A DNA stretch of 23,760 bases from a virus: positions 1 through 23,760 of the IMG/VR virus record IMGVR_UViG_3300024513_000087; one strand, given 5' to 3'. The notes under the pieces were generated by a model. That model had not been told where the DNA came from, ran no database searches, and saw only the letters and a list, made by a program, of their open reading frames with translations. Position numbers and translations under genes: made by a program. Shown piece after piece: positions 1,467 through 22,696 of the stretch. Each line of letters starts with the position of its first letter. The first letter of the stretch is position 1.

Positions 1467-2371
1467 ATCCACACTCCCAACATTTTACTTGCCTCGTTTG
1501 CACCAGCAACATTTATAGTTCCTGTTGCACTACCAGAGTATTCAAGCCATGCGATATAATTATAGCCAGTTTGTGGCATAGAACTCATATTGCTATGCCT
1601 TTGATGAAACCAAGTCAAAGTTCCGGTGGCATAGCCTTGGCCACTTGAAGTATAAGTTGGTATTCCTGAAGTTGTATTTAAAGCAGCACTTGGATAATAA
1701 GCAGAAATGGCCGTTGTTGCATAAGTATTTACAGTTAAGTTGCAAGATACTGAATCTAAAGCAATTCCGGCTACAAATTCTATTTTGTTATTTGAATTAT
1801 TATTGGCGTATCTCCAAGCTGCTGTAGTATAAGTCCAAGCACCAGTAGTCTCGTAAACATAAATATTCTTGGAAACTCTATTATTAAAATTCCAAACCAA
1901 TCTTTTGGTTGCAGAATCTTCCGTAGTAGTGGTAGAAGTCGTGCGAATTGTTCCCAAGTATCTTCTAGTTAATGCACCTGTTTTTAAATACACACCGTTG
2001 GTCATGGTTAATGATGTGGCCCTCGTTGTATCATTAGTCCACGCTGTTAATTCTAGAGTTAGCGTTCCGGCGTTGTTGTACAAAAAAACATCGTAGTTTC
2101 TAGCTGATATAAGAGTTCCTAAAGCCAAAGACCGTTGCGTAAATGTATAAGTAGACCAATTAGTTCCATCATAAAGACTGATACGATCACCATTATATGG
2201 TGTGTAATAGATTGTTGTTTTGCTTGTCTGATCAGAAGTGGATACTGGCACTCCGCTTTCTAGTGTAAGTCTGCCAGAAGCAGTATTAGTAACCCAAGAG
2301 CCACCAGTCGAATCGGTTAAAGAATTTACGCCAGATATAACTGCTGTTTTATTGTTAATTGCTATAGCCAT
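1460..2371 (-). CDS. Conserved phage tail/fibre structural protein, beta-rich
   Basis: A 303-residue protein rich in Thr, Ser, Asn and Tyr, typical of beta-structured virion proteins. Residues about 30-200 follow a layout I recognise from many uncultured phage fibre loci: a segment like GRLTLESGVPVSTSDQTSKT, then YYTPYNGDRISLYDG, then NYDVFLYNNAGTLTLELTAW, and TRRYLGTIRTTSTTTTEDSA. The family is usually annotated only as a hypothetical or tail protein, and its biochemical role is unknown. The start codon overlaps the fibre stop by one base (TAATG), so the two are probably made together in a fixed ratio. It may be a capping, receptor-binding or accessory subunit of the fibre; that part is inference. 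Confidence 0.75.
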   Translation of the reverse strand: MAIAINNKTAVISGVNSLTDSTGGSWVTNTASGRLTLESGVPVSTSDQTSKTTIYYTPYNGDRISLYDGTNWSTYTFTQRSLALGTLISARNYDVFLYNNAGTLTLELTAWTNDTTRATSLTMTNGVYLKTGALTRRYLGTIRTTSTTTTEDSATKRLVWNFNNRVSKNIYVYETTGAWTYTTAAWRYANNNSNNKIEFVAGIALDSVSCNLTVNTYATTAISAYYPSAALNTTSGIPTYTSSGQGYATGTLTWFHQRHSNMSSMPQTGYNYIAWLEYSGSATGTINVAGANEASKMLGVWIC

Positions 2372-5300
2372 TAGCCTGTTACCTCAACTGTATCAACTTT
2401 TGCTACCCATCTTATTGTTTTTGACGCTTCTCCAGTAACAAGTATTTTTAAACTTCCGTATGCAGTATCTGCTACAGCATCAACAGACCAAGAACTATCT
2501 CCACCTATTGTAGTTATAATTATACTGCCAACTAAAGCTGTGGTTCCAGCAGTAGCATTTCTATCAATAACTCCTTCAATCTTCCAACCAGCAGATTCAT
2601 CATTTGCATCTGTTCTTCTAGCAACTATTAATGCAGAAAATGCATAAGTTGTATCATTAGGTAATGACAAATGATTATATGTGTCTTGCGCCGATCCATC
2701 AGAAGTCATTACTGTCTGGGTTCCATTGGTAGTTGAACATCTTAAAGTCACGGTTCTTGATTGTGCATCTCCGGCAGATGAAAATGCTCCACTTGATAAA
2801 GCAAACGCACTTCCTGTTAAAGATCTTGTAGTTGCATTTGCTCCAGCAGAAATAAATCCATTAATACTAAAAGATCCATTTGCTTCTAAGGTAGCTATAT
2901 TAGTTGTTCCGGCATACCATTTAAAATAATTAGTTGTAGTTGGAATAGAAAACCACAAGGTATTCATTTCTATACCAAGTGCATAATCTACTGTTGTAGA
3001 GGAAACTTCTGGCCATAGGACTATTTTTGTTCCAGAACTTCTTGTATTGAATGACGGCGCAGCATATCCATTAGCGCCAAAATCTATTCTATTTCCACCA
3101 GAACCATCTAGATAAATTTGTCCTCCGCCATCAGATGCATTATTTGCAAGATTTGATACAAATCTTCCAGTATAATCAAAGTAAGAATAAGTGGTAGCTC
3201 CAGTAGAATTTCTAAAATCTAATAAGTTGGCAGTTTGTGAGTTTGCCCCAAATATTCCTAATGGTGTTTGACTTGCTGATGTTGCATAAGCTCCGGTATC
3301 AATTCCAGAAGTTGCCTGATATTCTAATCCAACAGCACCAGCAAAAGATCCAGCGCCATCATTATATTGGAAATAATATTGAGAACCTCCAGGAGATGAA
3401 TTGCTACCTTGATCACCTTGACTACCCTGATCTCCTTGATAACCTTGATCGCCCTGAGATCCTTGATCCCCCTGACTGCCTTGAAATCCTTGGGAACCTT
3501 GAACGCCTTGAAAACCTTGATATCCTTGAAAACCTCTTAGTCCTTGAATACCTTGATTTCCTTGAAACCCCTGACTACCTTGTGATCCAGTCGCACCTTG
3601 ATTTCCTTGTGACCCAGTAGAACCTTGACTACCCTGTGATCCAGTTGCGCCTTGATTACCCTGTGATCCAATAGATCCTTGACTACCTTGTGGTCCAGTT
3701 GCACCTTGATTTCCTTGTGATCCAGTAGCACCTTGATATCCTTGATACCCTTGTGATCCAGTATTACCTTGATATCCTTGATTGCCTTGTGAACCAGTAG
3801 AGCCTGTATTTCCTTGATAGCCTTGGCTACCTTGTACCCCATTATTTCCTTGGTTGCCTTGCGAGCCAGTATTGCCCTGATACCCTTGATTTCCTTGAGG
3901 TCCAGTTAACCCCTGATAACCTTGTGACCCATTGTTTCCTTGGTTGCCTTGATAACCTTGTGGGCCAACTTGAGTATATAAAACTTGAGTAGCTGTTAAT
4001 ATAATACTTGGAATTGCTGGGGCAGGAGAAGCAGCAGCTACATATTGTAAAGAAACATCAGTATTAGTTGCTTGCCAAGCTAGTTCTAGATAATCACCAG
4101 CATTAAGTTTTAAAACAAAATTAACTGTTCCAATAGCATGACCATCAGTTCCACCATGGCTTTCTACAACACTCCACTTGCTATCAGTATCAGATACATT
4201 TGAACCATTCTTTTTAAGCCATATACTAGCGTCTTGTATTTGAACATTAGCATTAACTAACTGTACAGAAAATATAATGCTATAAACACCAGAATAAGCA
4301 AATGTTATTCTTGAATTAGATACTACACTAACTCCATTATTATCAGCGTCTGAATTGTTGTAGGTTATAAGATATTCTGTATTTGCTGTAGTTATAAATT
4401 GATCTTGTGTAGACCAAAAAGATCCCCAATAACCTAATGCTCCACCAGCACCAGTAGCGCCAGTTGTACCTTGACTTCCCTGACTTCCCTGTGGTCCTGT
4501 TATAGAAGCTCCTTGATAACCTTGAAGACCTACACTACCTTGACTTCCTTGACTGCCTTGATAGCCAGAACCTTGATTTCCTTGAAAACCCTGTGAACCT
4601 TGGTCACCTTTGCTTAAAACTAACTGCCAATTAGATGGATATGATGGTGGAATATATCCAGCTGCACCAATATAAACTGTCATTACATATAAAGAACCAT
4701 CATATGTAACTGCTTGACCTACTGAATAGGTAACTCCATTATTATAAGATCCTAAATAATCAAATATTTCTGGGCCTTGTGATCCTTGGAAACCTTGATT
4801 GCCTTGATCACCTTGTGAACCTTGTTCACCTTGAAAACCTTGGCTACCTTGATCACCCTGTGAACCTTGTTCACCTTGAAAACCTTGGTTACCTTGGTCA
4901 CCCTGTGACCCTTGTTCACCTTGGAAACCTTGGTTACCTTGGTCACCCTGTGACCCTTGTTCACCTTGGAAACCTTGGTTACCTTGGTCACCCTGTGACC
5001 CTTGTTCACCTTGGAAACCTTGATTGCCTTGATCACCCTGTGACCCTTGTTCCCCTTGAAAACCTTGATTACCTTGGTTACCCTGTGATCCTTGTTGCCC
5101 TTGGAAACCTTGGTTACCTTGTGAACCTTGTGAACCTTGTATACCTTGAAAACCTTGATTACCTTGATGCCCCTGTGATCCTTGTTGTCCTTGCAATCCT
5201 TGATAACCTTGCGGACCTGTTGCTGGATTAGAAACTAAAGTTGTATGAATATGCGTTTGAGTATTATCACGAAACTCAAAAGTGGCAGAACTATTATTTT

Positions 5301-8300
5301 GTCTTATATTTACATATATTTTTATTCTCAATCTTTTAGTTAAATCTGGCAAAATTGTAGCAGGAACAACGAGATCTGAAACTACTAATGATTGAGTTGT
5401 TAAAATAGCAGAAGCTGATGAAGATGAACCTTGTATAATTAGTGTTTCATTGCTTGTGCCATCTGAATCTACATAATAAATACCATAATGCATAGTCGGC
5501 ACTTGGCCAGTAGTGCTTGAAAGTGCATATAAATTTAATTCCCAAACACCAGAAGTTATAACTGTTGAAGTTAAAGCGCCAACTTGAGTCGTAAATGTTC
5601 CAACCAAATAATTATTTGCTATATTTAAACTACCAGTTGTAATTGTGGTTTGTGTTCCGGCATTTACACTCGTTAATAATTCTCCAGTTTGCGGATATGA
5701 TCCACCGGTAGTATCAAAAAATAAAACTAAACCGCCACTAACACCGGCGTTTCCTTGAAAACCTTGATTACCCTGTAATCCTTGACTTCCTTGTAAACCT
5801 TGGTTGCCTTGATTGCCCTGTGATCCTTGAGTACCTTGAAAACCTTGGTTACCTTGGAATCCTTGATATCCAGAATCGCCCTTATCTCCAGTTCTTGCAA
5901 AAGTAAGTAATACTTCATCATCATTAGAAAATGTTCCGCTTCCAGATAAATAAGAAATTGTAACATCAAAAAAACTAGGTTCTTCTTCTGAGGAATTGCT
6001 TATAGTATAAAGTGCAAATACTGTAGAGTCATTTTTCTTAGATAATTTAAAATGACCTTTTATAGTGCTTGTTGAAGCAGAGATTGTATTTAAGAATAGC
6101 GAAAGATCTATGTTTGCATTATTTGGATTATCATCAATTATAACATGCGTAGCTGATGCAAGAGAAGCGTTATTAAATCTTATATAATTGTCACCTGGGT
6201 CGTTGATTGAGTAATTATTTGTGTCTATTTTATATTCAACTGTTACGCCACCAAAGCTACCAGTTGATCCCTGATATCCTTGGCCACCTTGATTTCCTTG
6301 AAAACCTTGTTCACCTTGTGAACCTTGTTCCCCTTGGAAACCCTGACTACCTTGATCACCTTGTGATCCCTGTTCCCCTTGAAAACCTTGGTTACCTTGA
6401 TCACCCTGTGACCCTTGTTCTCCTTGGAAACCTTGGTTACCTTGGTCACCTTGTGACCCTTGTTCGCCTTGAAAACCTTGGTTACCTTGGTCACCTTGTG
6501 ATCCCTGTTCCCCTTGGAAACCTTGGTTACCTTGATCACCCTGTGACCCTTGTTCACCTTGGAAACCCTGATTACCTTGATCACCTTGTGATCCCTGTTC
6601 CCCTTGGAAACCCTGATCACCCTGTGACCCTTGTTCTCCTTGGAAACCTTGGTCACCTTGTGATCCTTGTTCCCCTTGGAAACCTTGATTGCCTTGATCA
6701 CCCTGTGAACCTTGTTCCCCTTGGAAACCCTGATCACCTTGTGATCCTTGTTCTCCTTGAAAACCCTGATCACCTTGTGATCCTTGTTCCCCTTGAAAAC
6801 CTTGATTACCCTGTGATCCTTGTTCTCCTTGAAAACCCTGCTCGCCTTGTAATCCTTGATTTCCTAATAAACCTTGATTCCCTTGAAATCCTTGATTACC
6901 TTGATTTCCTTGGTTACCTTGAAACCCTTGGTTGCCTTGAAGACCCTGATTACCTTGGTTACCCTGCGACCCTTGAAAACCTTGGTTACCTTGAAATCCT
7001 TGTTGTCCTTGAGATCCTTTAATAGGACCAACATTTTGCCAATAAACAGGACTTGATCCTGTATAAACAACACCGTCACCTATTGCAGCGGAACCATTAG
7101 ATGGATTTGGACATGCTTGAGAAGCAGTTCCTTGTGCTGTTGATGTAAGTAGCCACATATCACCAAGTACAGCACCAGAAGTTTCATTATTAAATATATT
7201 TTCCCAAGTATCAGATCCCTGTATGGTAACTCCTGCTCCAGTCTGTCCTTGACTACCTTGAATACCTTGGTTTCCTTGAAATCCTTGATTTCCTTGATAA
7301 CCTTGTGAACCTTGTATTCCTTGTGAGCCTTGTATTCCTTGGTTACCTTGAAAACCTTGAAATCCTTGATTGCCTTGTTCTCCTTGAGATCCTTGGTTTC
7401 CTTGAGATCCTTGAGATCCTTGACTACCTTGAGAACCTTGATTCCCTTGAAAACCTTGGCTACCTTGGTTTCCTTGAAAACCCTGTCTACCTTGAAATCC
7501 TTGATTACCTTGAAACCCTTGATTTCCTTGCAACCCTTGAAAACCTTGCGAACCTTGAAAACCTTGATCGCCAACTAAAACAAAAGATACAGAAATTAAT
7601 TCATTTGCGATTAAAGAAAACCCAGCACTAGATTGAACATGAGAAACATTAAAAGAACCATATGTTCCATTAACTGTAGTAGAAGATGTTATTTTAAATA
7701 CTGTAAACTTTGAAGGATTTGTTATTGATTGAATAAACAATATTGATTTTGTAGAATTTGTAGAATTGTCAAAAAGACTATATATCTCATGAACTTCATT
7801 TCCATTAATATCATAAGCACTTAAACTTAATGTTGTTGCAGAAGATATAGTGAGGTTGTTGAATCTTAACTGAGATGGTGTTGGAACACCGGAGATAGAA
7901 GTGCTATATATATATTTAATTGATGGGGCATTTATACCTTGATAGCCTTGATAGCCAAGCTCGCCTGTTATATTAACATCCCATATACTTGCGCTTCCAG
8001 TTCCTGTTACATAATCAACATCTACAGTTATTTCATTTGTTACTGGATTTGTAGAAGTTACTTTTCCTTCTAAAAAATCATCATTATTAGTAATGTCAAC
8101 TATTCTTACTCTTACGCCAGCCCTAAATGATAATATATTAGAAATTACTAATGTTTTTAATCCGATTGTTTTTGTTAATGTTGATAAAGATTCAGAAAAA
8201 CCAAATGAAAAACCCTGAGAACCTTGAACACCTATAATTCCTTGTTCGCCTTGAAACCCTTGATTTCCTTGATTTCCTTGCGAACCCTGTGAACCCTGCG

Positions 8301-8448
8301 TTCCTTGATTTCCTTGAAAACCTTGTGAACCAGTAATTACGCCTGGAACAAAATTAGTTCCATCGAACTTAATTACTTGTCCAGAAGCGGGAACTCCTAC
8401 AAAATCATCTTGATCTTGTATTCTCGATGGTTTTTTGCTGAAATGCAT
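2371..8448 (-). CDS. Giant modular collagen-like tail fibre, 2025 aa
   Basis: The N-terminus (about 1-39) has an ASGQVIKFDGTNFVPG segment typical of phage fibre attachment regions. Seven Gly-X-Y blocks then alternate with globular modules. The first module (about 78-165) is a strand module; modules at about 177-292 and 730-855 are two copies of one fold, each ending in (R/V)(T/V)GD(K/Q)G. Others are at about 402-478 (Trp-containing), 905-1075 (jelly-roll-like), 1227-1282 (resembling small CBM5/12 carbohydrate-binding modules: VTYSVGQAVTYDGSLYVM) and 1335-1493 (C1q/TNF-like). The C-terminal domains (1685-2025) end in a strand-rich module widespread in phage fibres. Gln almost always fills the Y position. 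Such fibres normally trimerise as triple helices and bind the host surface. The start at 8448 lies 3 bases after the sulfotransferase stop, with only a weak ribosome binding site, so coupling is likely. Block number and length may vary between relatives. Confidence 0.9.
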   Translation of the reverse strand: MHFSKKPSRIQDQDDFVGVPASGQVIKFDGTNFVPGVITGSQGFQGNQGTQGSQGSQGNQGNQGFQGEQGIIGVQGSQGFSFGFSESLSTLTKTIGLKTLVISNILSFRAGVRVRIVDITNNDDFLEGKVTSTNPVTNEITVDVDYVTGTGSASIWDVNITGELGYQGYQGINAPSIKYIYSTSISGVPTPSQLRFNNLTISSATTLSLSAYDINGNEVHEIYSLFDNSTNSTKSILFIQSITNPSKFTVFKITSSTTVNGTYGSFNVSHVQSSAGFSLIANELISVSFVLVGDQGFQGSQGFQGLQGNQGFQGNQGFQGRQGFQGNQGSQGFQGNQGSQGSQGSQGSQGNQGSQGEQGNQGFQGFQGNQGIQGSQGIQGSQGYQGNQGFQGNQGIQGSQGQTGAGVTIQGSDTWENIFNNETSGAVLGDMWLLTSTAQGTASQACPNPSNGSAAIGDGVVYTGSSPVYWQNVGPIKGSQGQQGFQGNQGFQGSQGNQGNQGLQGNQGFQGNQGNQGNQGFQGNQGLLGNQGLQGEQGFQGEQGSQGNQGFQGEQGSQGDQGFQGEQGSQGDQGFQGEQGSQGDQGNQGFQGEQGSQGDQGFQGEQGSQGDQGFQGEQGSQGDQGNQGFQGEQGSQGDQGNQGFQGEQGSQGDQGNQGFQGEQGSQGDQGNQGFQGEQGSQGDQGNQGFQGEQGSQGDQGSQGFQGEQGSQGEQGFQGNQGGQGYQGSTGSFGGVTVEYKIDTNNYSINDPGDNYIRFNNASLASATHVIIDDNPNNANIDLSLFLNTISASTSTIKGHFKLSKKNDSTVFALYTISNSSEEEPSFFDVTISYLSGSGTFSNDDEVLLTFARTGDKGDSGYQGFQGNQGFQGTQGSQGNQGNQGLQGSQGLQGNQGFQGNAGVSGGLVLFFDTTGGSYPQTGELLTSVNAGTQTTITTGSLNIANNYLVGTFTTQVGALTSTVITSGVWELNLYALSSTTGQVPTMHYGIYYVDSDGTSNETLIIQGSSSSASAILTTQSLVVSDLVVPATILPDLTKRLRIKIYVNIRQNNSSATFEFRDNTQTHIHTTLVSNPATGPQGYQGLQGQQGSQGHQGNQGFQGIQGSQGSQGNQGFQGQQGSQGNQGNQGFQGEQGSQGDQGNQGFQGEQGSQGDQGNQGFQGEQGSQGDQGNQGFQGEQGSQGDQGNQGFQGEQGSQGDQGSQGFQGEQGSQGDQGNQGFQGSQGPEIFDYLGSYNNGVTYSVGQAVTYDGSLYVMTVYIGAAGYIPPSYPSNWQLVLSKGDQGSQGFQGNQGSGYQGSQGSQGSVGLQGYQGASITGPQGSQGSQGTTGATGAGGALGYWGSFWSTQDQFITTANTEYLITYNNSDADNNGVSVVSNSRITFAYSGVYSIIFSVQLVNANVQIQDASIWLKKNGSNVSDTDSKWSVVESHGGTDGHAIGTVNFVLKLNAGDYLELAWQATNTDVSLQYVAAASPAPAIPSIILTATQVLYTQVGPQGYQGNQGNNGSQGYQGLTGPQGNQGYQGNTGSQGNQGNNGVQGSQGYQGNTGSTGSQGNQGYQGNTGSQGYQGYQGATGSQGNQGATGPQGSQGSIGSQGNQGATGSQGSQGSTGSQGNQGATGSQGSQGFQGNQGIQGLRGFQGYQGFQGVQGSQGFQGSQGDQGSQGDQGYQGDQGSQGDQGSNSSPGGSQYYFQYNDGAGSFAGAVGLEYQATSGIDTGAYATSASQTPLGIFGANSQTANLLDFRNSTGATTYSYFDYTGRFVSNLANNASDGGGQIYLDGSGGNRIDFGANGYAAPSFNTRSSGTKIVLWPEVSSTTVDYALGIEMNTLWFSIPTTTNYFKWYAGTTNIATLEANGSFSINGFISAGANATTRSLTGSAFALSSGAFSSAGDAQSRTVTLRCSTTNGTQTVMTSDGSAQDTYNHLSLPNDTTYAFSALIVARRTDANDESAGWKIEGVIDRNATAGTTALVGSIIITTIGGDSSWSVDAVADTAYGSLKILVTGEASKTIRWVAKVDTVEVTG
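3406..3966 (-). repeat. Collagen block 7 with Gly-X-Thr triplets
   Basis: About 62 triplets. Unlike the other blocks, the first two thirds contain many Gly-X-Thr triplets (GNT, GST, GAT, GLT) and a few GPQ and GNN triplets; the last third returns to Gly-X-Gln with acidic X residues. Thr at the Y position resembles the bacterial collagen BclA, where such Thr residues carry O-linked sugars. The block directly precedes the C-terminal domains. Confidence 0.85.
4774..5217 (-). repeat. Collagen block 5, acidic 15-residue periods
   Basis: About 49 triplets organised as GFQGEQGSQGDQGNQ units, the same motif as block 3. The two blocks are separated by about 1 kb of unrelated globular modules, so one was probably copied from the other. 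Part of the block (4885-5019) is identical at the DNA level between units. Confidence 0.9.
4885..5019 (-). repeat. Three perfect tandem 45-bp units
   Basis: Three consecutive 45-base copies (4885-4929, 4930-4974, 4975-5019) are identical base for base, each coding for one 15-residue collagen unit. Neighbouring units differ at synonymous positions. Identity including third codon positions points to recent duplication by slippage or unequal recombination. Confidence 0.9.
6258..7017 (-). repeat. Collagen block 3, acidic 12/15-residue periods
   Basis: The longest block, about 84 triplets. Its core is built from two units of 12 and 15 residues, GFQGEQGSQGDQ and the same with GNQ added, repeated over ten times. 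Glu and Asp occupy X at regular intervals; there is no Lys, Arg or Pro in the core. Units differ from one another mainly at synonymous sites, which implies that the protein pattern is maintained by selection. Confidence 0.9.
7231..7572 (-). repeat. Collagen block 2 (Gly-X-Gln)
   Basis: About 38 triplets, nearly all Gly-X-Gln, with X drawn from Phe, Asn, Ser, Ile, Leu, Arg, Tyr and Glu. No proline is present. The block ends in GQTGAG before the Trp-containing module. It has a more mixed X position than blocks 3 and 5, and so less DNA-level repetition. Confidence 0.85.
8212..8331 (-). repeat. Collagen block 1 (Gly-X-Gln)
   Basis: A short run of Gly-X-Gln triplets with X mostly Phe, Ser, Asn, Thr or Glu, next to the N-terminal attachment region. 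One non-canonical stretch (GIIGVQG) breaks it near its end. In DNA it appears on the plus strand as CCTTG recurring every nine bases. Confidence 0.85.
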
Positions 8449-8451
8449 TGT

Positions 8452-9015
8452 TTATTCCAAGTATTTTGGAGTTATTCCTGTAGTGCATCCATCTATATAT
8501 GATACACCACAAAAATCTGCTAATTGATTTGCAATCTGATTAGTATTTTGCATCAAATCTGAATAATTTATAGTTATTTTTTTACCATTAAAAGAATTGA
8601 ATATATTTTGACAAATTTCATGCTGTTTTTCTATGGTATCTGGATTAGCTTGTCTACCAAGTAAAGAAACATATTCTTGATAAGATTTTTCTATATTTCT
8701 CATAGACCATATTAAACCAATGTTTAAATCACAATCATTAATTAATTTTGCAAAAACACCTTTTCTTAAAAGATCAAAAGATCTTATTCCCATTTTATTA
8801 AAAACGCAGCTTTCTTTTTTTAATTTCCAATATGTAGATGTATTTAATGAAATATAATTTGAAAATTTATCATTAAAACTACCAGTTGGATACCACAATG
8901 CATTATCAGATTGTGGACTTTTTTCAGACATACTTATGCCCAAAGAACTAATTATTTTTGATATAACGCTAGTTCCAGATCTATATGTTCCTAAAACTAT
9001 ATAACAATCGTTCAT
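8452..9015 (-). CDS. Sulfotransferase-like protein (PAPS-dependent fold)
   Basis: The 187-residue protein opens with a strand and P-loop, YIVLGTYRSGTSVISKII, matching the 5'-phosphosulfate-binding loop of sulfotransferases that move sulfate from PAPS to sugars or proteins. A later segment, LIWSMRNIEKSYQEYVSLLG, fits the 3'-phosphate-binding Arg and Ser region. It is shorter than cellular sulfotransferases (about 250-300 residues) but not obviously broken. Its start overlaps the stop of the upstream glycosyltransferase (ATGA) with GAGGA before it, and its stop is three bases before the fibre start. That chain of couplings suggests that it acts on the fibre, on sugars added to it, or on host-surface glycans. 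The substrate is unknown; another P-loop kinase-like role is possible. Confidence 0.7.
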   Translation of the reverse strand: MNDCYIVLGTYRSGTSVISKIISSLGISMSEKSPQSDNALWYPTGSFNDKFSNYISLNTSTYWKLKKESCVFNKMGIRSFDLLRKGVFAKLINDCDLNIGLIWSMRNIEKSYQEYVSLLGRQANPDTIEKQHEICQNIFNSFNGKKITINYSDLMQNTNQIANQLADFCGVSYIDGCTTGITPKYLE

Positions 9016-9938
9016 TCTAAATCCTCATTTCTATCATTAAAAAATTTATTAATATCTTTTAGTAAATTACTATTTCCGACATATCTATATATACCCTGTT
9101 CTATAGCAAGATCTTTTTGCAATGAAAAATCATTATTATCTAATAAATCAAATCTAGATGCATATTGTCTATCTATTTTATTTCCATGATTAAGATGAAA
9201 AACCGGCTGATCTATATAATCAATATCAATATTGTTTTTGGGCAAAGTTAATAAATCGTCAATAAAGTTGTTTTTAAATTTTTTATACTTTATAAATGGT
9301 ATACTTTTTGTTTCTTCTAAATCTAACCACTTGATTATATTTATTGTGTCTCCTCCGCCAACTATGCATTTATCATATAGAGGGTTATTTAATAATGTTT
9401 CTTTTTTGGTTATCCAAGCTATACCTGGATTTCCATAAACAAAGTCTTCTGAAAATAGCGTTTTTTTATAACCATCTTTTCCGCCAGAAACAACGACTTG
9501 TTTTGAAATAGAATCGTGTTTAAATGTATAAAATCCATTGTATTTAGTATGATTTCTAGGTAAATAATGAACAGAAGAGAACGGTTGAATAAATAAGTTT
9601 TCTTTATTATCAATTTTTTGTTTTGCTTGTTCTATCCAGTCTTCTTCTGAAAAAAGAATATCTCCATCAATAAAAGAAACATATTTTATATCATCCGTTA
9701 ATTTTTGACAAACATAATTAATAACCCTTTCCTTCTGCCATAATAACTGATCTGTTTGAAATTTTATAGTTCCTGGAAATGGCAAATCAAAACTACCATT
9801 TGTAGAAATTTCTATCGGTATAATTATAGCATTATATTTTGATAGATTATTATGACATATATAAAAATTATTTAATAAGGATTTTCTTTTATAATGATTC
9901 CAATAATACATTATTATTGCAACATCATTATTTATCAT
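9012..9938 (-). CDS. Glycosyltransferase, GT-A fold with DxD motif
   Basis: The 308-residue protein begins with a strand, IAIIMYYWNH-like (VAIIMYYWNHYKRK), and has a clear metal- and nucleotide-binding DxD motif in YVSFIDGDILFSEEDW at about residues 88-103. A later GNPGIAWITKKETL segment and a VGGGDTINI segment resemble the acceptor-side regions of GT-A enzymes, including the galactosyltransferase-like group. It would transfer a sugar from a nucleotide donor to an acceptor. It is soluble, with no membrane segment. The start overlaps the preceding stop by four bases (ATGA), with AAGG upstream. Base composition is very AT-rich, like the genes on each side, and the cluster may have been gained as a unit. 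Donor and acceptor are not readable from sequence. Confidence 0.75.
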   Translation of the reverse strand: MINNDVAIIMYYWNHYKRKSLLNNFYICHNNLSKYNAIIIPIEISTNGSFDLPFPGTIKFQTDQLLWQKERVINYVCQKLTDDIKYVSFIDGDILFSEEDWIEQAKQKIDNKENLFIQPFSSVHYLPRNHTKYNGFYTFKHDSISKQVVVSGGKDGYKKTLFSEDFVYGNPGIAWITKKETLLNNPLYDKCIVGGGDTINIIKWLDLEETKSIPFIKYKKFKNNFIDDLLTLPKNNIDIDYIDQPVFHLNHGNKIDRQYASRFDLLDNNDFSLQKDLAIEQGIYRYVGNSNLLKDINKFFNDRNEDLE

Positions 9939-10936
9939 ACTTTAACCTTTATATTTGAAGTGTAGTTTTGTAATGATATATTCATAACTTGAGCTTCTTG
10001 CAAAGAAATACTTCTGTTAAGAAACACGCTAAAAGGGAAATAAGCTAAGTATCTTGTTTTAATTGAATTTTCTATGTCTTGATGAGTTGAGTATACAACC
10101 GCATAATTTTCATTGTCTGGAATAAAGTTATCATCAACAAAAGTAACTCTATCCTCAAGACCAAATCTTTGTAACCAAATTTTATTATCTATAAAATCAA
10201 TTTTATTTTTTGGTTTATAAGAAATAACTTTACATCCAGCTTGTGCTAATATTAACAAATCTGCTGCGGAAGAACCAATGTATATAATATTATTATTAAC
10301 TATCAAACTGGCTAAATCTATATAGTCATTATTAAAACTTCTATTTGGAACACCGTCAGGAAACACTATTGGAAATTCTAAAAATTGATGTTCAAGTTTT
10401 ATATTATCTGTTGCTAAATTAACTTTCGGCCAAAAACAAACAGTATTACAAAATTTTAAAAATTGATTTAATGTTTGAATTATTGAATTTCTATCATGTA
10501 CTTTTTTAATAAACTTTTTTAAATGCCTTGAAGAGATTAAAAATGGGCCGGTCGTAGTTTCTTCTATATATGAAGTAGTTGAGTATTCTGATGATTTACT
10601 TTCTGGCATTGGACCATTACATATTTTTAAAACAGCCAAATCAACTTGATATCTAAGCAACGGTTTCCAAGTTGATAAATTGTTATAAACATGCGGAGAT
10701 AGCTTTTGAGAATTTTCTACAAAAATAAAGTATTCGTAAGAATCTAGCAAAGATGCTTGCTCTAAAAAACTATAAAAATATGAATTTCTATTTTCTTTTT
10801 CAAGAGATACAACTTTTCCGACAAAATCTGTATAATTTACATTGCTTGGAAATAATTTATTTTGAAAGCAAACTAAATTTGTTAAGGGTTTTGTTCCAAC
10901 TCTAAATTCTGTTGATCTAGCATTACATACTGCCAT
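9935..10936 (-). CDS. Two-part protein: GT25-like N-terminus, Rossmann/methyltransferase-like C-terminus
   Basis: In the N-terminal half (about 1-200) the segment YEYFIFVENSQKLSPHVYNN matches the place where GT25-type glycosyltransferases have an EDD metal motif, but here it reads VEN, so metal binding may be lost. TTTGPFLISSRHLKKFI fits the later GT25 pattern. The C-terminal half contains IIYIGSSAADLLILAQAGCK followed by a basic loop, similar to the first motif of SAM-dependent methyltransferases but lacking the usual Gly-rich loop. This may be an inactive or diverged bifunctional glycan-modifying enzyme. It opens the operon that ends in the fibre, with AGGAGG five bases before the start and a TATAAT box just upstream. 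The domain assignments are tentative. Confidence 0.5.
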   Translation of the reverse strand: MAVCNARSTEFRVGTKPLTNLVCFQNKLFPSNVNYTDFVGKVVSLEKENRNSYFYSFLEQASLLDSYEYFIFVENSQKLSPHVYNNLSTWKPLLRYQVDLAVLKICNGPMPESKSSEYSTTSYIEETTTGPFLISSRHLKKFIKKVHDRNSIIQTLNQFLKFCNTVCFWPKVNLATDNIKLEHQFLEFPIVFPDGVPNRSFNNDYIDLASLIVNNNIIYIGSSAADLLILAQAGCKVISYKPKNKIDFIDNKIWLQRFGLEDRVTFVDDNFIPDNENYAVVYSTHQDIENSIKTRYLAYFPFSVFLNRSISLQEAQVMNISLQNYTSNIKVKV

Positions 10937-10941
10937 GTTTT

Positions 10942-10947
10942 CCTCCT
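10942..10947 (-). promoter_or_regulatory. Strong ribosome binding site of glycan/fibre operon
   Basis: AGGAGG stands five bases before the ATG at 10936. It is one of the strongest such sites in the window and supports the start choice and high expression of the first gene of this operon. Confidence 0.7.
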
Positions 10948-10955
10948 AAAAATAT

Positions 10956-10961
10956 ATTATA
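10956..10961 (-). promoter_or_regulatory. Candidate promoter -10 box (TATAAT) for glycan/fibre operon
   Basis: On the minus strand TATAAT is followed by ATATTTTT and then the ribosome binding site. No good -35 hexamer is 16-18 bases upstream, so it may be read by a phage sigma factor, as T4-type late promoters (TATAAATA) are. It lies between the capsid-gene terminator and the first glycan gene, where a promoter is needed. A similar TATAATA box precedes the capsid gene. Confidence 0.45.
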
Positions 10962-10982
10962 GGAAGAAATCGGGAATGCAAT

Positions 10983-11015
10983 AAAAAAAGGCAGAGCTTT
11001 CGCCCTGCCCTTTTT
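10983..11015 (-). terminator. Rho-independent terminator after major capsid gene
   Basis: On the minus strand an 8-base-pair stem (GGCAGGGC / GCTCTGCC, with one G-U pair) has a GAAA tetraloop and is followed by seven T. The stem lies at 10990-11009. It is imperfect (A-C mismatch) when read on the plus strand, which supports minus-strand use. It starts about 24 bases after the capsid stop codon. Confidence 0.85.
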
Positions 11016-11033: not shown

Positions 11034-12023
11034 TTAGAAACCGCCCAAGAGTACACGGCGGTTATCGAGAACAGCGAAACCGTGTTCACCAAAACCGTAC
11101 ATACCCATCCTACGCTGACGATGGAAAGTAGGATCTTCAAAGATCTCGATTTCCTGACGAACAGGCATAACGAAGCTGTCACGCTTCTCAAGGTCAAGAC
11201 CAACGACCAACTCGCTCTTGCCAGACAGAGAGCCAGACAAGGTAGAGGTGTAGTAAAGCTGGTATTCCTGACCAACACCAAGTTCATCAATCTCATGAAG
11301 ATTTACGCCGAAAACCTGAGATAAACCACCTTCCTGAGAAACAAAAATTTCTCGGCGGGTGAAGTCATCAACTTCGTTAATATCCCAAGTGCGAATATCT
11401 TCCATAGCTTCTGGAGATACATACAGATCGGTAAGCTTTCCACGATTAATGGAAGTGCTGTTACCACCAGCATTCCTACGCATCACGGTCTTCATCAAGG
11501 CAATAAGCCTCTTGCTGAAGTAACCAGCGGTAGCAACGCTGTCAGTCACAAGAAGGTTCCTACCTTTACCAGCAGCGATGATTACATGCCAACCATCATT
11601 ATTGTTCTTGCGGGTAAAAGAAGCTTCAAGGGTCTGCATTGCACGACCAACAATATCCCAACGAGCATCACGAAGATACTTAAGGGAGAAGTCGATGGAA
11701 GCACCAACTTCATAGGTCTGTACAGTCAGATAATCGCCTTCAACATGGCGTTCTGGAATACGACCTTGGGAAGGAATGGTGTAAGCGATGAAGTCCTTCT
11801 CAGAACCTGGAGACAGGAAATCGAGAGGGAATTCAACAGCAGTACCTGGCTGGAAAACAACCTGTTCAAAGATGTTTCCAAGAATATCGCCCTTCAAAAC
11901 GCCTTGGCGCAAAGGAAGGGTAAGAGCCTTGGCAAGTTCCTTCTGAGCAGCTACAGCAACTTCATAATTGTTGCTACCAGCCTGTTCAGCAAGTTTAACC
12001 ATTTCTGGAGTTGGGGTCTTCAT
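11034..12023 (-). CDS. Major capsid protein, HK97-like fold
   Basis: The 329-residue protein has the order expected of HK97-fold capsid proteins: a helical N-terminus, a beta-hairpin (E-loop) region with VEFPLDFLSPGSEKDF and HVEGDYLTVQTYEVGASIDF, a long spine helix around YLRDARWDIVGRAMQTLEAS, and P-domain and A-domain strands. It also has a KLTDLYVSPEAMEDIRTWDI segment typical of this group. It assembles the icosahedral head shell. It follows the protease/scaffold and decoration-like genes, the usual order, and is followed by a terminator. The start has GAGGAG upstream. Codon use is visibly richer in C/G-ending codons than the glycan genes, as expected of the most highly expressed virion gene. 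No large N-terminal pro-domain is evident. Confidence 0.88.
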   Translation of the reverse strand: MKTPTPEMVKLAEQAGSNNYEVAVAAQKELAKALTLPLRQGVLKGDILGNIFEQVVFQPGTAVEFPLDFLSPGSEKDFIAYTIPSQGRIPERHVEGDYLTVQTYEVGASIDFSLKYLRDARWDIVGRAMQTLEASFTRKNNNDGWHVIIAAGKGRNLLVTDSVATAGYFSKRLIALMKTVMRRNAGGNSTSINRGKLTDLYVSPEAMEDIRTWDINEVDDFTRREIFVSQEGGLSQVFGVNLHEIDELGVGQEYQLYYTSTLSGSLSGKSELVVGLDLEKRDSFVMPVRQEIEIFEDPTFHRQRRMGMYGFGEHGFAVLDNRRVLLGGF

Positions 12024-13961: not shown

Positions 13962-14711
13962 TCACCTCTTTTTAAGAAATACACCAAACCAATTGAGTAT
14001 TCTTTTATACAATGGAACATAACCGCTTATGCACAAAGAAATTGTATCTATTTGAATTTGAGGTTTGTCTGCAAACTGAGCTAAAAACTCAGATGTATTT
14101 TTTGAATCAAAATAAAAATTATCAAAAAATCCATTAACTTTCACTTTTTTTAAATTATTATAATTCAAACTTTTTGGCCAAGCAGCTTCTAAAACATCTG
14201 GGTTATTATTATTTATTAATGGTGGCCAAACATCTTGATTAGATGTAACTGCAAAAACAGCAGTTTTCCATGCGTTTAACATTTCTGAATTCCACTTAAA
14301 AACAGAAGCATCAAAACCTTGGTTAATTTGTTTTTCAAAAATATTATAAGCCATAGGACTTACTTTAGTGTCTGTGGCATGAACAATTACAAAACAGTCA
14401 TTTCCGTTTTCATCAAAAATAATTGGTAACGCTTTTCTAAAATTAATACTTTCATAAAAACTTGTACTTCCTGTTTTGTCTACTGTATTTCTATAAATAA
14501 CTTTATGTATTAAATTATTTTTTTGTAATTCATCTAAAATCCATTTTTTGGAAATCTCTGGGTCTGCCCATAAAACATAAATAATAGGATGGTGTTTAAA
14601 GAAAACTCTACATCTATAAATATGCTGAACATTATCTATTAGTTCATGATATCTGCGATGAAGAGTTATCAATATTATCGGTTTTTTGTAATCCGATTGT
14701 GTGCATCGCAT
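13962..14711 (-). CDS. Glycosyltransferase-like protein inside head operon
   Basis: A 249-residue protein whose N-terminus, KPIILITLHRRYHELIDNVQ, followed by IIYVLWADPEISKKWILDEL, looks like the first Rossmann-type half of a GT-A glycosyltransferase. CFVIVHATDTKVSPMAYN may hold the metal site (DTK in place of DxD). A FKWNSEMLNAWKTAVFAVT segment follows. The family call is by pattern only. The start at 14711 overlaps the end of the portal gene by 68 bases in another frame and has no strong ribosome binding site, so it may depend on portal translation. Its stop is four bases before the protease start. The position between portal and protease is unusual for a sugar-transfer enzyme and suggests modification of head proteins. 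Confidence 0.55.
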   Translation of the reverse strand: MRCTQSDYKKPIILITLHRRYHELIDNVQHIYRCRVFFKHHPIIYVLWADPEISKKWILDELQKNNLIHKVIYRNTVDKTGSTSFYESINFRKALPIIFDENGNDCFVIVHATDTKVSPMAYNIFEKQINQGFDASVFKWNSEMLNAWKTAVFAVTSNQDVWPPLINNNNPDVLEAAWPKSLNYNNLKKVKVNGFFDNFYFDSKNTSEFLAQFADKPQIQIDTISLCISGYVPLYKRILNWFGVFLKKR

Positions 14712-18950: not shown

Positions 18951-19407
18951 AATGTTCACACACTCTCTTAAATAAACTCGAAGCTACTTCTCGCCCAAAT
19001 TTTCCTGCAAGAATAATCTTTGTCTTAAATTGTACTTCTATATCTAAAAGTGCTTTTACAATAAACTGCGGAGTTATTTTTATAAACTTGTATTTGCTTG
19101 GGGGGATTTGAGTAGATTGAGGAAACTTGTAAATGTCTTCCATCGTAAATTCTAAAATAACAAATGGAAGCTCAAAGCTCTCAAGTCTTTCTAATTCGCT
19201 ATGAAATCTTTTTTGTGTGATGTTCATAGAGAATTCACTAAGATCTCCCTTCCTCTCTATCACAAATTTATCTTCAAAACCTTCTAATGAGTAATCGCCA
19301 GTTTTTAATGTGGCGATAGTCATTCCTTCACATGAAGGACTTGGATTGAATTCCCACCCAAGTTGTTCTCTAGTGTCTTTTATTACCTTATATTTTTTGT
19401 TGTTCAT
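18937..19407 (-). CDS. ERCC4 (XPF)-type nuclease, stand-alone
   Basis: A 156-residue protein with the ERCC4 nuclease signature: DTREQLGWEF at 11-20, TLKTGDYSLEGFEDKFVIER at 33-52, and the catalytic ERK-x-D motif at 51-55 (Glu51, Arg52, Lys53, Asp55). A conserved ITQKRFHSELERL helix follows. XPF-family nucleases cut branched or flap DNA. Here the domain stands alone, without the helicase or helix-hairpin-helix parts of XPF/Hef, as in some phages. It overlaps the dehydratase gene by 20 bases and the terminase gene by about 14. Its position suggests trimming of branches in replicated DNA before packaging, which is inference. Confidence 0.85.
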   Translation of the reverse strand: MNNKKYKVIKDTREQLGWEFNPSPSCEGMTIATLKTGDYSLEGFEDKFVIERKGDLSEFSMNITQKRFHSELERLESFELPFVILEFTMEDIYKFPQSTQIPPSKYKFIKITPQFIVKALLDIEVQFKTKIILAGKFGREVASSLFKRVCEHYGQT

Positions 19408-20383
19408 AAAGTTTATAGTCAGAAAGAACCATGTCTTTGACTAACTCACTAAAAGTGACGGTGGGAGTCCAACCAGTAACTTCCATAATCTTTGTTGGAT
19501 TTCCTCTAAGGTGTTTTACTTCAGAAGGTCTAAACAAAGACTGATCTATATCAACATGTTGTTGATAATTATCAATTCCTGCAACAATACATGCTTCTTC
19601 AAGGAATTCTTCTACTGAATGAGTAGATCCTGTAGCAACAACATAGTCATCTGGCTTCTCTTGATCGACAATTAGTTTCATTGCCTTAACATAATCAGCT
19701 GCATGACCCCAATCTCTTCGTGCTTTTAGATTTCCAAGAGTGATTCTTGGTAATGAAAGACCTCTTTCATAGCAATACATGAACTTTGCTGCCCACAAAC
19801 TGATTTTTCTAGTGACAAAATTGTGTCCTCTGCGTGGACTTTCATGATTAAACAAAATTCCGCAGCTTGCATGTAGGTTATATGAGTTGCGATAGCAGTT
19901 TACGAAGTTGTGAGCAGCTACTTTTGCTACTGCATAAGGACTTTCTGGTATGAAAGGCGTATTTTCGTCTTGAGTGCCATCATCTTCGACAGCATTTCCA
20001 AATTGTTCGGACGAACTTGCTTGATAAAACCTAGAAAATGGTGCGCTATCACGAAAAGCTTGCAAAACATTGAAGCAACCAACAGCAACTGAGTCAAAAG
20101 TCAGCATTGGCTGGTCAAAAGACACCCTAACATGTGATTGTGCAGCTAAATTAAAGATATAATCGGGTTGTTCGGCAGAAATAATATTCAAAACCGAGTG
20201 ATAATCAGTCACATCTCCATAAACAATACTAAAAAATGATGAGTTTAAGACATTTTTCAGTCTGGATAGGTTGTCAGACGATGTTCTTCGAGTAACACCA
20301 ACAACTTTGATGTTATTTTGTATCAAATATTCAGCTAAATATGACCCGTCTTGACCTGTAACGCCAAAAATTACTGCTTTCAT
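19388..20383 (-). CDS. gmd: GDP-mannose 4,6-dehydratase
   Basis: A 331-residue short-chain dehydrogenase of the GMD family, which turns GDP-D-mannose into GDP-4-keto-6-deoxy-mannose, the precursor of GDP-fucose, GDP-rhamnose and GDP-perosamine. Visible features are the NADP(H) loop GVTGQDGSYL at 7-16, SSSEQFG with the active-site Ser and Glu at about 124-126, Tyr150 and Lys154 in SPYAVAK, NHESPRRGHNFVTRKI, the typical GNLKARRDWGHAADYVKAM, and RPSEVKHLRGNPTKIMEVTG near the end. Length matches the family, so it is probably active. The start overlaps the upstream stop (ATGA) with AAGGA before it. It sits inside the packaging operon, and no downstream fucose synthase or aminotransferase is seen here. 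Confidence 0.93.
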   Translation of the reverse strand: MKAVIFGVTGQDGSYLAEYLIQNNIKVVGVTRRTSSDNLSRLKNVLNSSFFSIVYGDVTDYHSVLNIISAEQPDYIFNLAAQSHVRVSFDQPMLTFDSVAVGCFNVLQAFRDSAPFSRFYQASSSEQFGNAVEDDGTQDENTPFIPESPYAVAKVAAHNFVNCYRNSYNLHASCGILFNHESPRRGHNFVTRKISLWAAKFMYCYERGLSLPRITLGNLKARRDWGHAADYVKAMKLIVDQEKPDDYVVATGSTHSVEEFLEEACIVAGIDNYQQHVDIDQSLFRPSEVKHLRGNPTKIMEVTGWTPTVTFSELVKDMVLSDYKLYEQQKI

Positions 20384-21944: not shown

Positions 21945-22145
21945 ATGGCCAGAGTTAAGTGGACTGAATCAATGTTGAAGTTTGTTCGTGAGAACTGCCA
22001 CTACATGACAGACAATCAACTTGCTCTTGCACTATCATCTATCATTGGTGTTCGTGTGTCAAGTCATAGTGTCAGAAACCTAAGAGAAGAAAAGGGTTAT
22101 ACAAAATGGAAACGGTCTTCAACCAAAGATCCCCCCACCTCTTAA
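21945..22145 (+). CDS. Small HTH-like protein, 66 aa
   Basis: A 66-residue basic protein with a compact helical fold: VKWTESMLKFVRENCHYMTD, then a second helix NQLALALSSIIG, then SSHSVRNLREEKGYTKW as a likely recognition helix. The layout (W-x-E ... N ... ms-x-x-q-l-a ... v-s-x-x-s-v-r) resembles the small DNA-binding repeats seen beside phage HNH endonucleases and in phage regulators, but no nuclease motif is present. The start has only a weak upstream TGAGAAAA. It is the first rightward gene and overlaps the next start by 40 bases. A role in DNA binding or regulation of the divergent promoters is inferred. Confidence 0.6.
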   Translation: MARVKWTESMLKFVRENCHYMTDNQLALALSSIIGVRVSSHSVRNLREEKGYTKWKRSSTKDPPTS

Positions 22146-22696
22146 TAGTAGACAACTTCTACAAAGATCCAGACTCAATAGTACATTTAGCAGAACAACA
22201 GGAGTATAAGCCTCAGTTAAAGTATTATAAGGGCGTTAGGACTGAGGAGAGGTTTTTATTTCCATATGTAAGAGAGGAATTCCAAAGACTGCTTCGTTTG
22301 GAAATTACAGACTGGTTAAATCAACCTATGAATGGAATTTTTCAGAAGACCAGTAAAGATGACCCTCTCGTATGGCATAGTGATAGTCAAGATTATGCTG
22401 CTGCTATTTATTTAACTAAAGATGCGCCCGTATCTATGGGAACATCTTTTTGGAGAGATACAAAGTTTGGCTGTCGTAGACCACCAAGCCATCCCTTGGA
22501 GGGCAAAGCAATAGCTGACGCTGAAGTGTATACCGAGTACAATCTCTTGCATAAAGACAATTGGCAGTTAGTTGATAAAGTAGGGGCCGTATATAATAGA
22601 CTAGCCATTTGGGATGCAAAGCTGATTCACTCAGCTAGTGAGTATGGTTCAATGGATCGTTTGGTACAACTTTTTTTCTTTAGTACGAAAAGGTAG
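22106..22696 (+). CDS. 2OG-Fe(II) oxygenase-like protein (DUF6445-like)
   Basis: A 196-residue protein with an iron- and 2-oxoglutarate-dependent dioxygenase layout: HxD at His91 and Asp93 (PLVWHSDSQDYAAAIYLT), a GTSFWRD strand, and after a loop the distal His175 and Arg185 in NRLAIWDAKLIHSASEYG followed by RLVQLFFF. These residues would hold Fe(II) and 2OG. Such enzymes hydroxylate amino acids, nucleobases or small molecules; the substrate is not readable here. The resemblance is to the DUF6445 group often found in phage genomes, judged from the pattern. The start has AAGGG nine bases upstream and overlaps the small HTH-like gene. It is followed after eight bases by a second, different oxygenase. 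Confidence 0.72.
   Translation: METVFNQRSPHLLIVDNFYKDPDSIVHLAEQQEYKPQLKYYKGVRTEERFLFPYVREEFQRLLRLEITDWLNQPMNGIFQKTSKDDPLVWHSDSQDYAAAIYLTKDAPVSMGTSFWRDTKFGCRRPPSHPLEGKAIADAEVYTEYNLLHKDNWQLVDKVGAVYNRLAIWDAKLIHSASEYGSMDRLVQLFFFSTKR

What the first reader, a model, noticed from the sequence alone, without database searches (positions are those of the whole stretch)
8452..10936. Glycan-modification cassette translationally chained to the collagen-like fibre
Sequence shows: a GT25-like/Rossmann protein, a DxD glycosyltransferase and a sulfotransferase-like P-loop protein joined to one another by ATGA overlaps, the last ending three bases before the start of the giant fibre, all behind one promoter box and strong ribosome binding site. 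Family knowledge: these folds transfer sugars and sulfate. Inference: the phage builds a glycosylated and sulfated fibre or virion. I know of no described phage system that couples glycosylation and sulfation to a collagen-like fibre.
Basis: partly seen in the sequence, partly recalled or inferred. Interest (0 to 1): 0.75.

Follow-up and report, generated by a model that had tools for sequence, protein, structure and literature searches.

The report
Phage sugar-modifying genes beside collagen fibre
A large uncultured phage carries three fast-changing enzyme genes, probably for building a decorated sugar, in one operon with its collagen-like fibre; relatives carry almost identical pieces of that fibre without the enzymes, so what the enzymes modify is still open.

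Summary
In detail: three genes (P333, P308, P187) overlap by ATGA and end 3 nt before a 2025-aa collagen-like fibre, behind a capsid-gene terminator and their own TATAAT box and AGGAGG, a layout kept in all 3 lineages with the cassette. Such packing is common in this phage (12 of 17 gene pairs). P308 looks like a GT-A glycosyltransferase; P187 is sulfotransferase-like with a doubtful PAPS site; P333 is not supported as GT25, and its C-terminal half resembles methyltransferases. Of 29 capsid clusters, 14 show collagen-like fibres: 3 with this cassette, 3 with an unrelated FkbM/GT25 cassette, 8 with neither. The complete cassette was never seen without collagen, but five of the fibre's eight globular domains occur, up to 100% identical, in cassette-free loci; the collagen repeats hold almost no lysine or proline. 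Cassette proteins evolve faster than core proteins (dN/dS 0.22-0.43 versus 0.04-0.16) with catalytic motifs kept in P308. Best reading: a diversifying late module making a capped glycan on the virion (0.45), or on the host surface (0.30). Glycosyltransferase and sulfotransferase genes near tail-fibre genes are known from phages such as S-SRM01: a new variant of a known kind.

The parts
9935..10936 (-). P333, 333 aa: N-terminal half of unknown fold, C-terminal half (about 190-312) SAM-methyltransferase-like
   Evidence: model mean pLDDT 43.5; Foldseek best E 1.0e-3, TehB; all 50 rows shown are methyltransferases, Z 8.3-9.7. No Pfam, NCBIfam or PHROG family.
9012..9938 (-). P308, 308 aa: GT-A fold, probably a glycosyltransferase
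   Evidence: BoGT6a, GTA/GTB, mannosylglycerate synthase, GalNAc-T2, and also sugar cytidylyltransferases. D91/D93, GD197 and H248/H251-G252 kept in 3 lineages and in the Xanthomonas phage XaC1 homologue. Weak Glycos_transf_2 hits of its homologues, below cut-off.
8452..9015 (-). P187, 187 aa: sulfotransferase-like P-loop protein
   Evidence: Pfam Sulfotransfer_3 E 3.8e-5 (24.5 bits, cut-off 27); the L030 homologue passes the cut-off (31.5 bits) and the L036 one does not (26.2). GTYRSGTS loop visible in the sequence; R106+8 is an invariant Glu where phage sulfotransferases have Ser (register by eye).
2371..8448 (-). collagen-like fibre, 2025 aa: 9 collagen runs, 289 triplets, Gln at Y in 251, alternating with globular domains
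   Evidence: (Collagen E 1.9e-130).
10937..10981 (-). AGGAGG ribosome binding site, TATAATATA box and TTGCAT 14 nt before it, upstream of P333
   Evidence: Sequence; equivalent boxes and AGGAGG in L030 and L036.
10988..11006 (-). stem-loop of an intrinsic-terminator-like site between capsid gene and cassette
   Evidence: by eye a hairpin with T tract at the same place in all 15 sequences printed, with several different stem sequences.
11034..12023 (-). major capsid protein, the anchor of the comparison
   Evidence: PHROG 2522 major head protein E 6.8e-7; 80 loci.

Best explanation
The three genes are a late-expressed, soluble glycan cassette carried in the adhesion-fibre transcription unit. 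P308 transfers a sugar, and P187 (sulfate) and perhaps P333 (methyl, if its methyltransferase-like half is active) cap or modify it. The most likely acceptor is a virion surface protein (fibre globular domains, capsid or another late protein), giving a variable sugar coat that changes quickly under selection by hosts or competitors. Shown: operon layout and its conservation, a GT-A fold with conserved DxD and His residues, a sulfotransferase-like family hit, fast protein evolution. Inferred: late expression, activity, sugar, acceptor and purpose.
For: The cassette begins after a capsid-gene terminator with its own box and runs into the fibre gene. In the 3 cassette lineages the fibre start has no clear Shine-Dalgarno of its own, whereas 4 of 4 sister loci printed have GGAG there, which fits translational coupling. 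No cassette protein has a membrane-like segment (maximum 19-residue hydropathy 0.83-1.49). DxD, GD and HxxHG of P308 and the YRSGTSVI loop of P187 are invariant while overall identity is 43-58%. dN/dS is 0.32-0.43 against L030 and 0.22-0.41 against L036, versus 0.04-0.16 for the core genes other than P249 that gave a value. The complete cassette occurs only with a collagen-like fibre (3 of 3 clusters), and an unrelated cassette (FkbM methyltransferase, GT25, a 325-aa protein) sits between capsid gene and collagen-like fibre in 3 other clusters. A GDP-mannose 4,6-dehydratase lies beside the terminase genes, and epimerase-family matches occur in 10 of 10 relatives' records searched.
Against: No direct evidence of any modified virion protein. 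Tight gene packing is general in this phage (12 of 17 pairs). Near-identical fibre domains occur without the cassette. 8 of 14 collagen clusters lack any glycan cassette there. Ser and Asn frequency in the collagen repeats is not consistently higher in cassette lineages. By fold alone P308 could be a sugar nucleotidyltransferase: the best VIA-align rows are cytidylyltransferases, and no curated glycosyltransferase cut-off is reached. P187's PAPS site is doubtful and APS kinase was found in 0 of 10 records. P333's methyltransferase motif I lacks the second glycine (by eye).
Confidence: 0.45

Rival explanations
1. The cassette modifies the host's surface glycan late in infection (sulfating, methylating or adding a sugar to lipopolysaccharide or capsule), to block superinfection or stop released virions sticking to debris. 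It sits beside the fibre because both belong to the host-recognition locus.
For: This is the published reading for glycosyltransferases in the host-recognition cluster of pelagimyophages, whose structural operon also holds collagen repeats (PMC7029224, passages seen). Fibre domains are exchanged independently of the cassette. Further GT2-family matches are scattered through the 206-221 kb cassette-bearing records (6 and 7 matches, one in each being the P308 homologue).
Against: No membrane-like segment in the cassette proteins; the unit lies after the capsid gene and with a fibre, where early superinfection-exclusion genes are not expected (inference).
Confidence: 0.3
2. The interval is a variable cargo slot: genes of unrelated use inserted between capsid and fibre, not coupled to the fibre in function.
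For: The interval holds this cassette, an 83-95 aa cysteine-rich protein, or an FkbM/GT25 cassette in different clusters. The genes are AT-rich (GC 0.26 against 0.46 for the capsid gene). Overlaps are common in the genome.
Against: Gene order, overlaps and catalytic motifs are kept across 3 lineages despite 42-57% divergence; both larger cassettes are sugar-related.
Confidence: 0.15
3. The enzymes modify something other than surfaces: phage DNA or a small molecule.
For: Phage glycosyltransferases are known to modify DNA (general statements in PMC10202952 and PMC12619734, passages seen).
Against: The genes sit among structural genes; sulfation of DNA is not known to me; no base-modifying gene is recognisable in the cassette, although two oxygenase-like genes lie about 11 kb away on the other strand.
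Confidence: 0.1

Closest known systems
Host-recognition cluster of pelagimyophages (PMC7029224, passages seen)
   Same: Glycosyltransferases among tail-fibre genes in a hypervariable region; triple collagen repeats reported among proteins of the structural operon.
   Different: T4-like marine phages, GT8 the most represented family; no sulfotransferase in the text (0 occurrences); read there as host O-chain modification.
Synechococcus phage S-SRM01 baseplate/tail-fibre region (NC_070963.1)
   Same: Sulfotransferase, glycosyltransferase, nucleotide-sugar epimerase and a 2OG oxygenase beside baseplate and long tail fibre genes (annotation).
   Different: No run of 6 or more collagen triplets in the stretch read; a full-length sulfotransferase; not a compact three-gene operon ending at a fibre.
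Mimivirus L230 collagen hydroxylase/glucosyltransferase (PMC4691112, passages seen)
   Same: A virus-encoded enzyme glycosylating its own collagen-like proteins.
   Different: Acts on hydroxylysine; the window's collagen runs hold 1 Lys in 289 triplets, and P333/P308 show no GT25 or hydroxylase match in Pfam.
Mycobacteriophage virion glycosylation (Freeman et al. 2023; seen only as cited in PMC12619734)
   Same: Glycans on virion proteins of a phage.
   Different: Capsid and tail-tube C-termini of mycobacteriophages; no collagen or sulfation in the passage seen.
FkbM/GT25 cassette in L078, L082, L084
   Same: Same interval between capsid gene and collagen-like fibre, also a methyltransferase plus a glycosyltransferase.
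   Different: Proteins without detectable relation to this cassette (no tblastn match; GT25 against P333 by hhalign 0.4%) and a different fibre N-terminus.

Membership tests
GT-A glycosyltransferase (P308) | GT-A (nucleotide-diphospho-sugar transferase) fold | tested here: met
   AlphaFold2 model (mean pLDDT 48.1; first 110 residues 53-80 by block), Foldseek E 1.8e-4 to BoGT6a, VIA-align Z 9.6-11.4 to GT-A enzymes and sugar nucleotidyltransferases. The fold does not separate these two groups.
GT-A glycosyltransferase (P308) | Conserved metal-binding DxD and C-terminal His | tested here: met
   D91, D93, H248, H251 invariant in 3 lineages and in phage XaC1; meaning of the motifs recalled.
Named Pfam glycosyltransferase family (P308) | Score above curated cut-off | tested here: not met
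   Best Glycos_transf_2 18.0 bits against 23.3 for the L030 homologue; MGS_GT 12.5 against 27 for the window.
Sulfotransferase Sulfotransfer_3 (P187) | Score above Pfam cut-off (27 bits) | tested here: inconclusive
   Window 24.5, L036 26.2, L030 31.5: 1 of 3 passes.
Sulfotransferase Sulfotransfer_3 (P187) | 5'-phosphosulfate-binding loop (P-loop-like) | tested here: met
   YRSGTSVI invariant in 3 lineages; motif recalled.
Sulfotransferase Sulfotransfer_3 (P187) | 3'-phosphate-binding Arg...Ser (R+8) | tested here: inconclusive
   The 4 phage sulfotransferases in A5 keep R112/S120; P187 has R106 and an invariant Glu at +8; register set by eye. hhalign aligned only 34 C-terminal columns, probability 17.9%.
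GT25 (P333) | Match to Glyco_transf_25 or to the cousins' GT25 proteins | tested here: inconclusive
   No Pfam hit; hhalign probability 0.4% against A4. Both alignments are shallow (3 and 2 sequences) and residues 1-190 are modelled with low confidence.
Class I SAM methyltransferase (P333 C-terminal half) | Rossmann-like methyltransferase fold | tested here: inconclusive
   All 50 rows are methyltransferases (Z 8.3-9.7, residues about 190-312), but on a model of mean pLDDT 43.5, and Foldseek's best E is 1.0e-3.
Class I SAM methyltransferase (P333 C-terminal half) | GxGxG motif I | tested here: not met
   IYIGSSAAD (window), VYVGSSPAE (L030), VYLGSSAAE (L036), by eye, motif recalled.
Collagen-modifying system of Mimivirus/animal type | Lys or Pro available at collagen Y positions | tested here: not met
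   251 of 289 Y positions are Gln; 1 Lys and 6 Pro in all window collagen runs, the 6 Pro at X.
Cassette obligatorily paired with collagen fibre | Cassette and fibre gained and lost together | tested here: not met
   Fibre without cassette: 8 of 14 collagen-bearing clusters have no glycan cassette there. Cassette without fibre: not seen (0 of 3). Cassette profiles matched in 5 of 28 records searched.

The most novel reading that the evidence does not exclude
Aquatic large phages of this capsid lineage use the interval between capsid and collagen-like fibre as a slot for interchangeable glycan-capping cassettes (methyltransferase-like plus glycosyltransferase plus sulfotransferase-like here; FkbM plus GT25 in cousins), giving their fibres or capsids a sulfated or methylated glycan coat that diversifies independently of the fibre domains: a two-part adhesion system with separately changing protein and sugar parts.
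Probability: 0.2. Interest if true: 0.75.

Novelty: new variant of a known kind. Interest (0 to 1): 0.42.

Why it matters
The role of phage sulfotransferases is open: PMC10580990 says their function in phage genomes remains unclear (passage seen). Here a sulfotransferase-like gene sits in a compact operon with a glycosyltransferase-like gene and a fibre, which narrows the possible substrates and makes the question testable. The comparison separates two layers of variation: fibre domains are exchanged between lineages, while the cassette proteins change in place by amino-acid substitution.

Tried and rejected
Rejected: P333 as a collagen GT25; a collagen hydroxylysine or hydroxyproline route; replacement of the whole cassette by recombination as the main cause of its divergence from L030, because its dS (0.86-1.28) is within or just above that of core genes (0.56-1.26) while its dN is about 3-21 times that of the core genes other than P249 (Nei-Gojobori with Jukes-Cantor, near saturation, AT-rich codons; the L036 scaffold row failed, with 1 codon aligned, and was dropped, and the L036 P156 row gave no finite dS).

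Led nowhere: PDB sequence searches with A1, A2, A3, A7, A8 and the L030 P187 homologue gave no credible relative. Viral scans with the three-sequence alignments returned only the 3 known lineages. Genome-contig scans with A1 and A2 found none. The viral scan with the cousin GT25 alignment returned only the contigs of L082 and L084. P333 and P187 have no match at E 0.01 in 50,697 phage records; P308 has one at E 1e-5, XaC1, with no gene annotated as structural within 8 kb. The cousin 325-aa protein looked GH130-like to me by recall; no Pfam or PDB hit supports that. The output was cut, so the proteins of some loci there (L078, L079 among them) were not read; one search covers them by search only. 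The L066 fibre start in my ORF listing is odd and was not used for start-site statements. Literature: (collagen-like, phage, glycosyltransferase, sulfotransferase) gave 2 papers, neither on phage fibres by title and abstract start; one search gave 0; one search gave 8, of which I read passages of 3.
Full report
What is there. The window is a 23,760-base virus record, probably a fragment. By eye, a hairpin with T tract follows the capsid gene in all 15 sequences printed, with several different stem sequences, and the cassette begins behind TATAATATA and AGGAGG. Overlaps, box and AGGAGG recur in all 3 lineages that hold the cassette. In these lineages the fibre start has only a weak GGA before it, while 4 of 4 sister loci printed have GGAG, which fits translational coupling. 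As a control, 12 of 17 adjacent minus-strand pairs in the window overlap or lie within 3 nt (longest-ORF starts), so packing alone says little.

What the proteins are. P308: the AlphaFold2 model from 3 sequences has low mean confidence (48.1), but its N-terminal part gives GT-A matches; the best VIA-align rows are sugar cytidylyltransferases, so the fold alone does not settle glycosyl transfer. DxD, GD and HxxHG are kept in the 3 lineages and in the only homologue found among 50,697 phage records, Xanthomonas phage XaC1, 24.5% identical. P187: Sulfotransfer_3 at E 3.8e-5 in the window; of 3 lineages only the L030 homologue is over the curated cut-off. The 5' loop is intact, but the expected 3'-phosphate-binding Ser is an invariant Glu (by eye). 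P333: no family; the C-terminal half gives only methyltransferases among the 50 rows shown, on a poor model (43.5) and with a degenerate motif I by eye. The GT25 label is not supported.

Distribution. The capsid protein brought in 80 loci (the best 80 of 104 relatives), 29 clusters at 97% nucleotide identity. Fourteen clusters show collagen-like fibres within the stretch fetched: 3 with this cassette; 3 with an unrelated cassette (325-aa protein; TPR plus FkbM methyltransferase, best E 1.9e-16; GT25, best E 3.2e-5; in L084 a collagen-like ORF also precedes the cassette); 8 with only an 83-95 aa cysteine-rich protein. Two clusters end too early to tell (L029, with part of P333 only; L073, with part of the second cassette). 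Thirteen show no counted collagen fibre, 10 of them with at least 9 kb downstream; one, L092, has a single run of exactly 6 triplets in a 900-aa protein and was not counted as a fibre. None of the 10 has either cassette, but one, L068, has a sulfotransferase (PF13469 E 2.1e-15) directly behind two large non-collagen proteins that I take for fibres. So both cassettes, where complete, were seen only with collagen-like fibres (3 of 3 and 3 of 3), while fibres occur without them. Profiles of the three cassette proteins matched in 5 of the 28 records I searched, all from the three cassette lineages; sister records up to 142 kb have no match. Loci are cut at about 10 kb and no record is known to be complete. 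Clusters are related, so these counts are not independent events.

Evolution. Between the window and L030 the capsid protein is 97% identical and the cassette proteins 49-58%. dS is 0.86-1.28 in the cassette and 0.56-1.26 in core genes, while dN/dS is 0.32-0.43 against 0.04-0.16; P249, a gene next to the portal, has 0.28. Against L036 the cassette values are 0.22-0.41. So the cassette mainly diversified in place. The fibre behaves differently: several of its globular domains are exchanged. Domain 736-853 is 95-98% identical in amino acids in the 14 best of 28 loci (92-94% nucleotides in the 12 rows shown), all cassette-free phages; capsid genes of those for which I computed it are 71-74% identical in nucleotides. 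Domain 1345-1494 is 100% identical in nucleotides, and domain 908-1077 96%, to cassette-free L038, whose capsid gene is 77% identical. Domains 407-477 and 1228-1280 also occur in cassette-free loci, at up to 89% and 88%. Against this, domains 82-161 and 174-292 were found only in L030-type loci (62% and 55%), which have the cassette, and the C-terminal 342 residues in none of the other loci. So most fibre parts occur with and without the cassette, but not all.

The collagen as target. The window fibre has 289 triplets in runs, 251 with Gln at Y, 1 Lys and 6 Pro in all. The hydroxylysine chemistry of Mimivirus L230 (PMC4691112, passages seen) has almost no substrate here. Ser at X is 75 of 289 in the window but 11 of 88 in the partial L036 fibre and 28 of 255 in cassette-free L055, and Asn shows no consistent difference, so the repeats carry no consistent sign of being the acceptor.

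Sugar and sulfate supply. The window's GDP-mannose 4,6-dehydratase-like protein (19388-20383; Pfam GDP_Man_Dehyd E 7e-107) scores 355 bits to TIGR01472, under its cut-off of 415. Epimerase-family matches occur in 10 of 10 records searched, with and without collagen. APS kinase is in 0 of 10 (11 of 14 control genomes ring), so any sulfate donor would be the host's, as far as these incomplete records show. GT2-family matches occur in 8 of 10 records, some of them P308 homologues.

Comparison with the known. Glycosyltransferases among fibre genes in a hypervariable region, with collagen repeats in the structural operon, are described for pelagimyophages and read as host O-chain modification (PMC7029224, passages). 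S-SRM01 has a sulfotransferase, a glycosyltransferase, an epimerase and a 2OG oxygenase near baseplate and tail-fibre genes (annotation); the passages of its paper that I saw mention glycosyltransferases and no sulfotransferase (PMC8557907). Viral sulfotransferases are also counted as auxiliary genes in estuarine surveys (PMC12285232, PMC13079714, passages). OM43 phage authors state that their role is unclear (PMC10580990, passages). The window's operon is a compact variant with a collagen-like fibre. I did not find it described.

Verdict. The enzyme reading is well supported for P308, plausible for P187 and unsupported for P333 as GT25. The link to the collagen fibre as specific target is weakened by the comparison but not excluded.

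Noticed in passing
L078, L082, L084 (and part in L073), between capsid gene and collagen-like fibre: An unrelated cassette of a conserved 325-aa protein of unknown family, a TPR plus FkbM methyltransferase protein and a GT25 protein occupies the same interval in three clusters.
   Followed up: partly
window 5890-6243 and 3967-4416 (fibre residues 736-853 and 1345-1494) against L038, L043, L055 and others: Fibre globular domains are exchanged across lineages: up to 100% nucleotide identity where capsid genes are 71-77% identical.
   Followed up: yes
window 7573-8205 (fibre residues 82-292) and 2374-3399 (residues 1684-2025): The first two globular domains were found only in the L030-type loci, which also hold the cassette; the C-terminal 342 residues in no other locus of the 80.
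   Followed up: partly
window 13962-14711 (P249): A gene between portal and scaffold genes, conserved in the sister clade (32-40%) and the cassette lineages (65-72%), with raised dN/dS (0.25-0.28) and no credible family or PDB match.
   Followed up: partly
window 19388-20383: GDP-mannose 4,6-dehydratase-like gene beside the terminase genes; a homologue lies about 8-10 kb upstream of the capsid gene in many relatives too.
   Followed up: partly
window 22106-22696 and 22705-23265, plus strand: A DUF6445 protein and a 2OG-Fe(II) oxygenase stand side by side; the tail region of S-SRM01 also has a 2OG oxygenase near its sulfotransferase.
   Followed up: no
L068 19782-20612: A sulfotransferase (PF13469, over cut-off) directly behind two large non-collagen fibre-like genes; relatives in cyanophages S-SKS1, S-SRM01 and S-SCSM1.
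   Followed up: partly
L055 11088-11339 and equivalents in the sister clade: An 83-95 aa cysteine-rich protein (weak DUF6171 match, E 1.6e-4, below cut-off) sits where the cassette is in the window's lineage.
   Followed up: no
window 4624-4746 (fibre residues 1235-1275): A weak carbohydrate-binding module match (CBM_5_12, E 0.0015, below cut-off) in a fibre domain.
   Followed up: no
L040 10597-11503, L085 18556-19420: Thr/Pro-rich, mucin-like repeats in proteins downstream of the fibres of cassette-free relatives.
   Followed up: no
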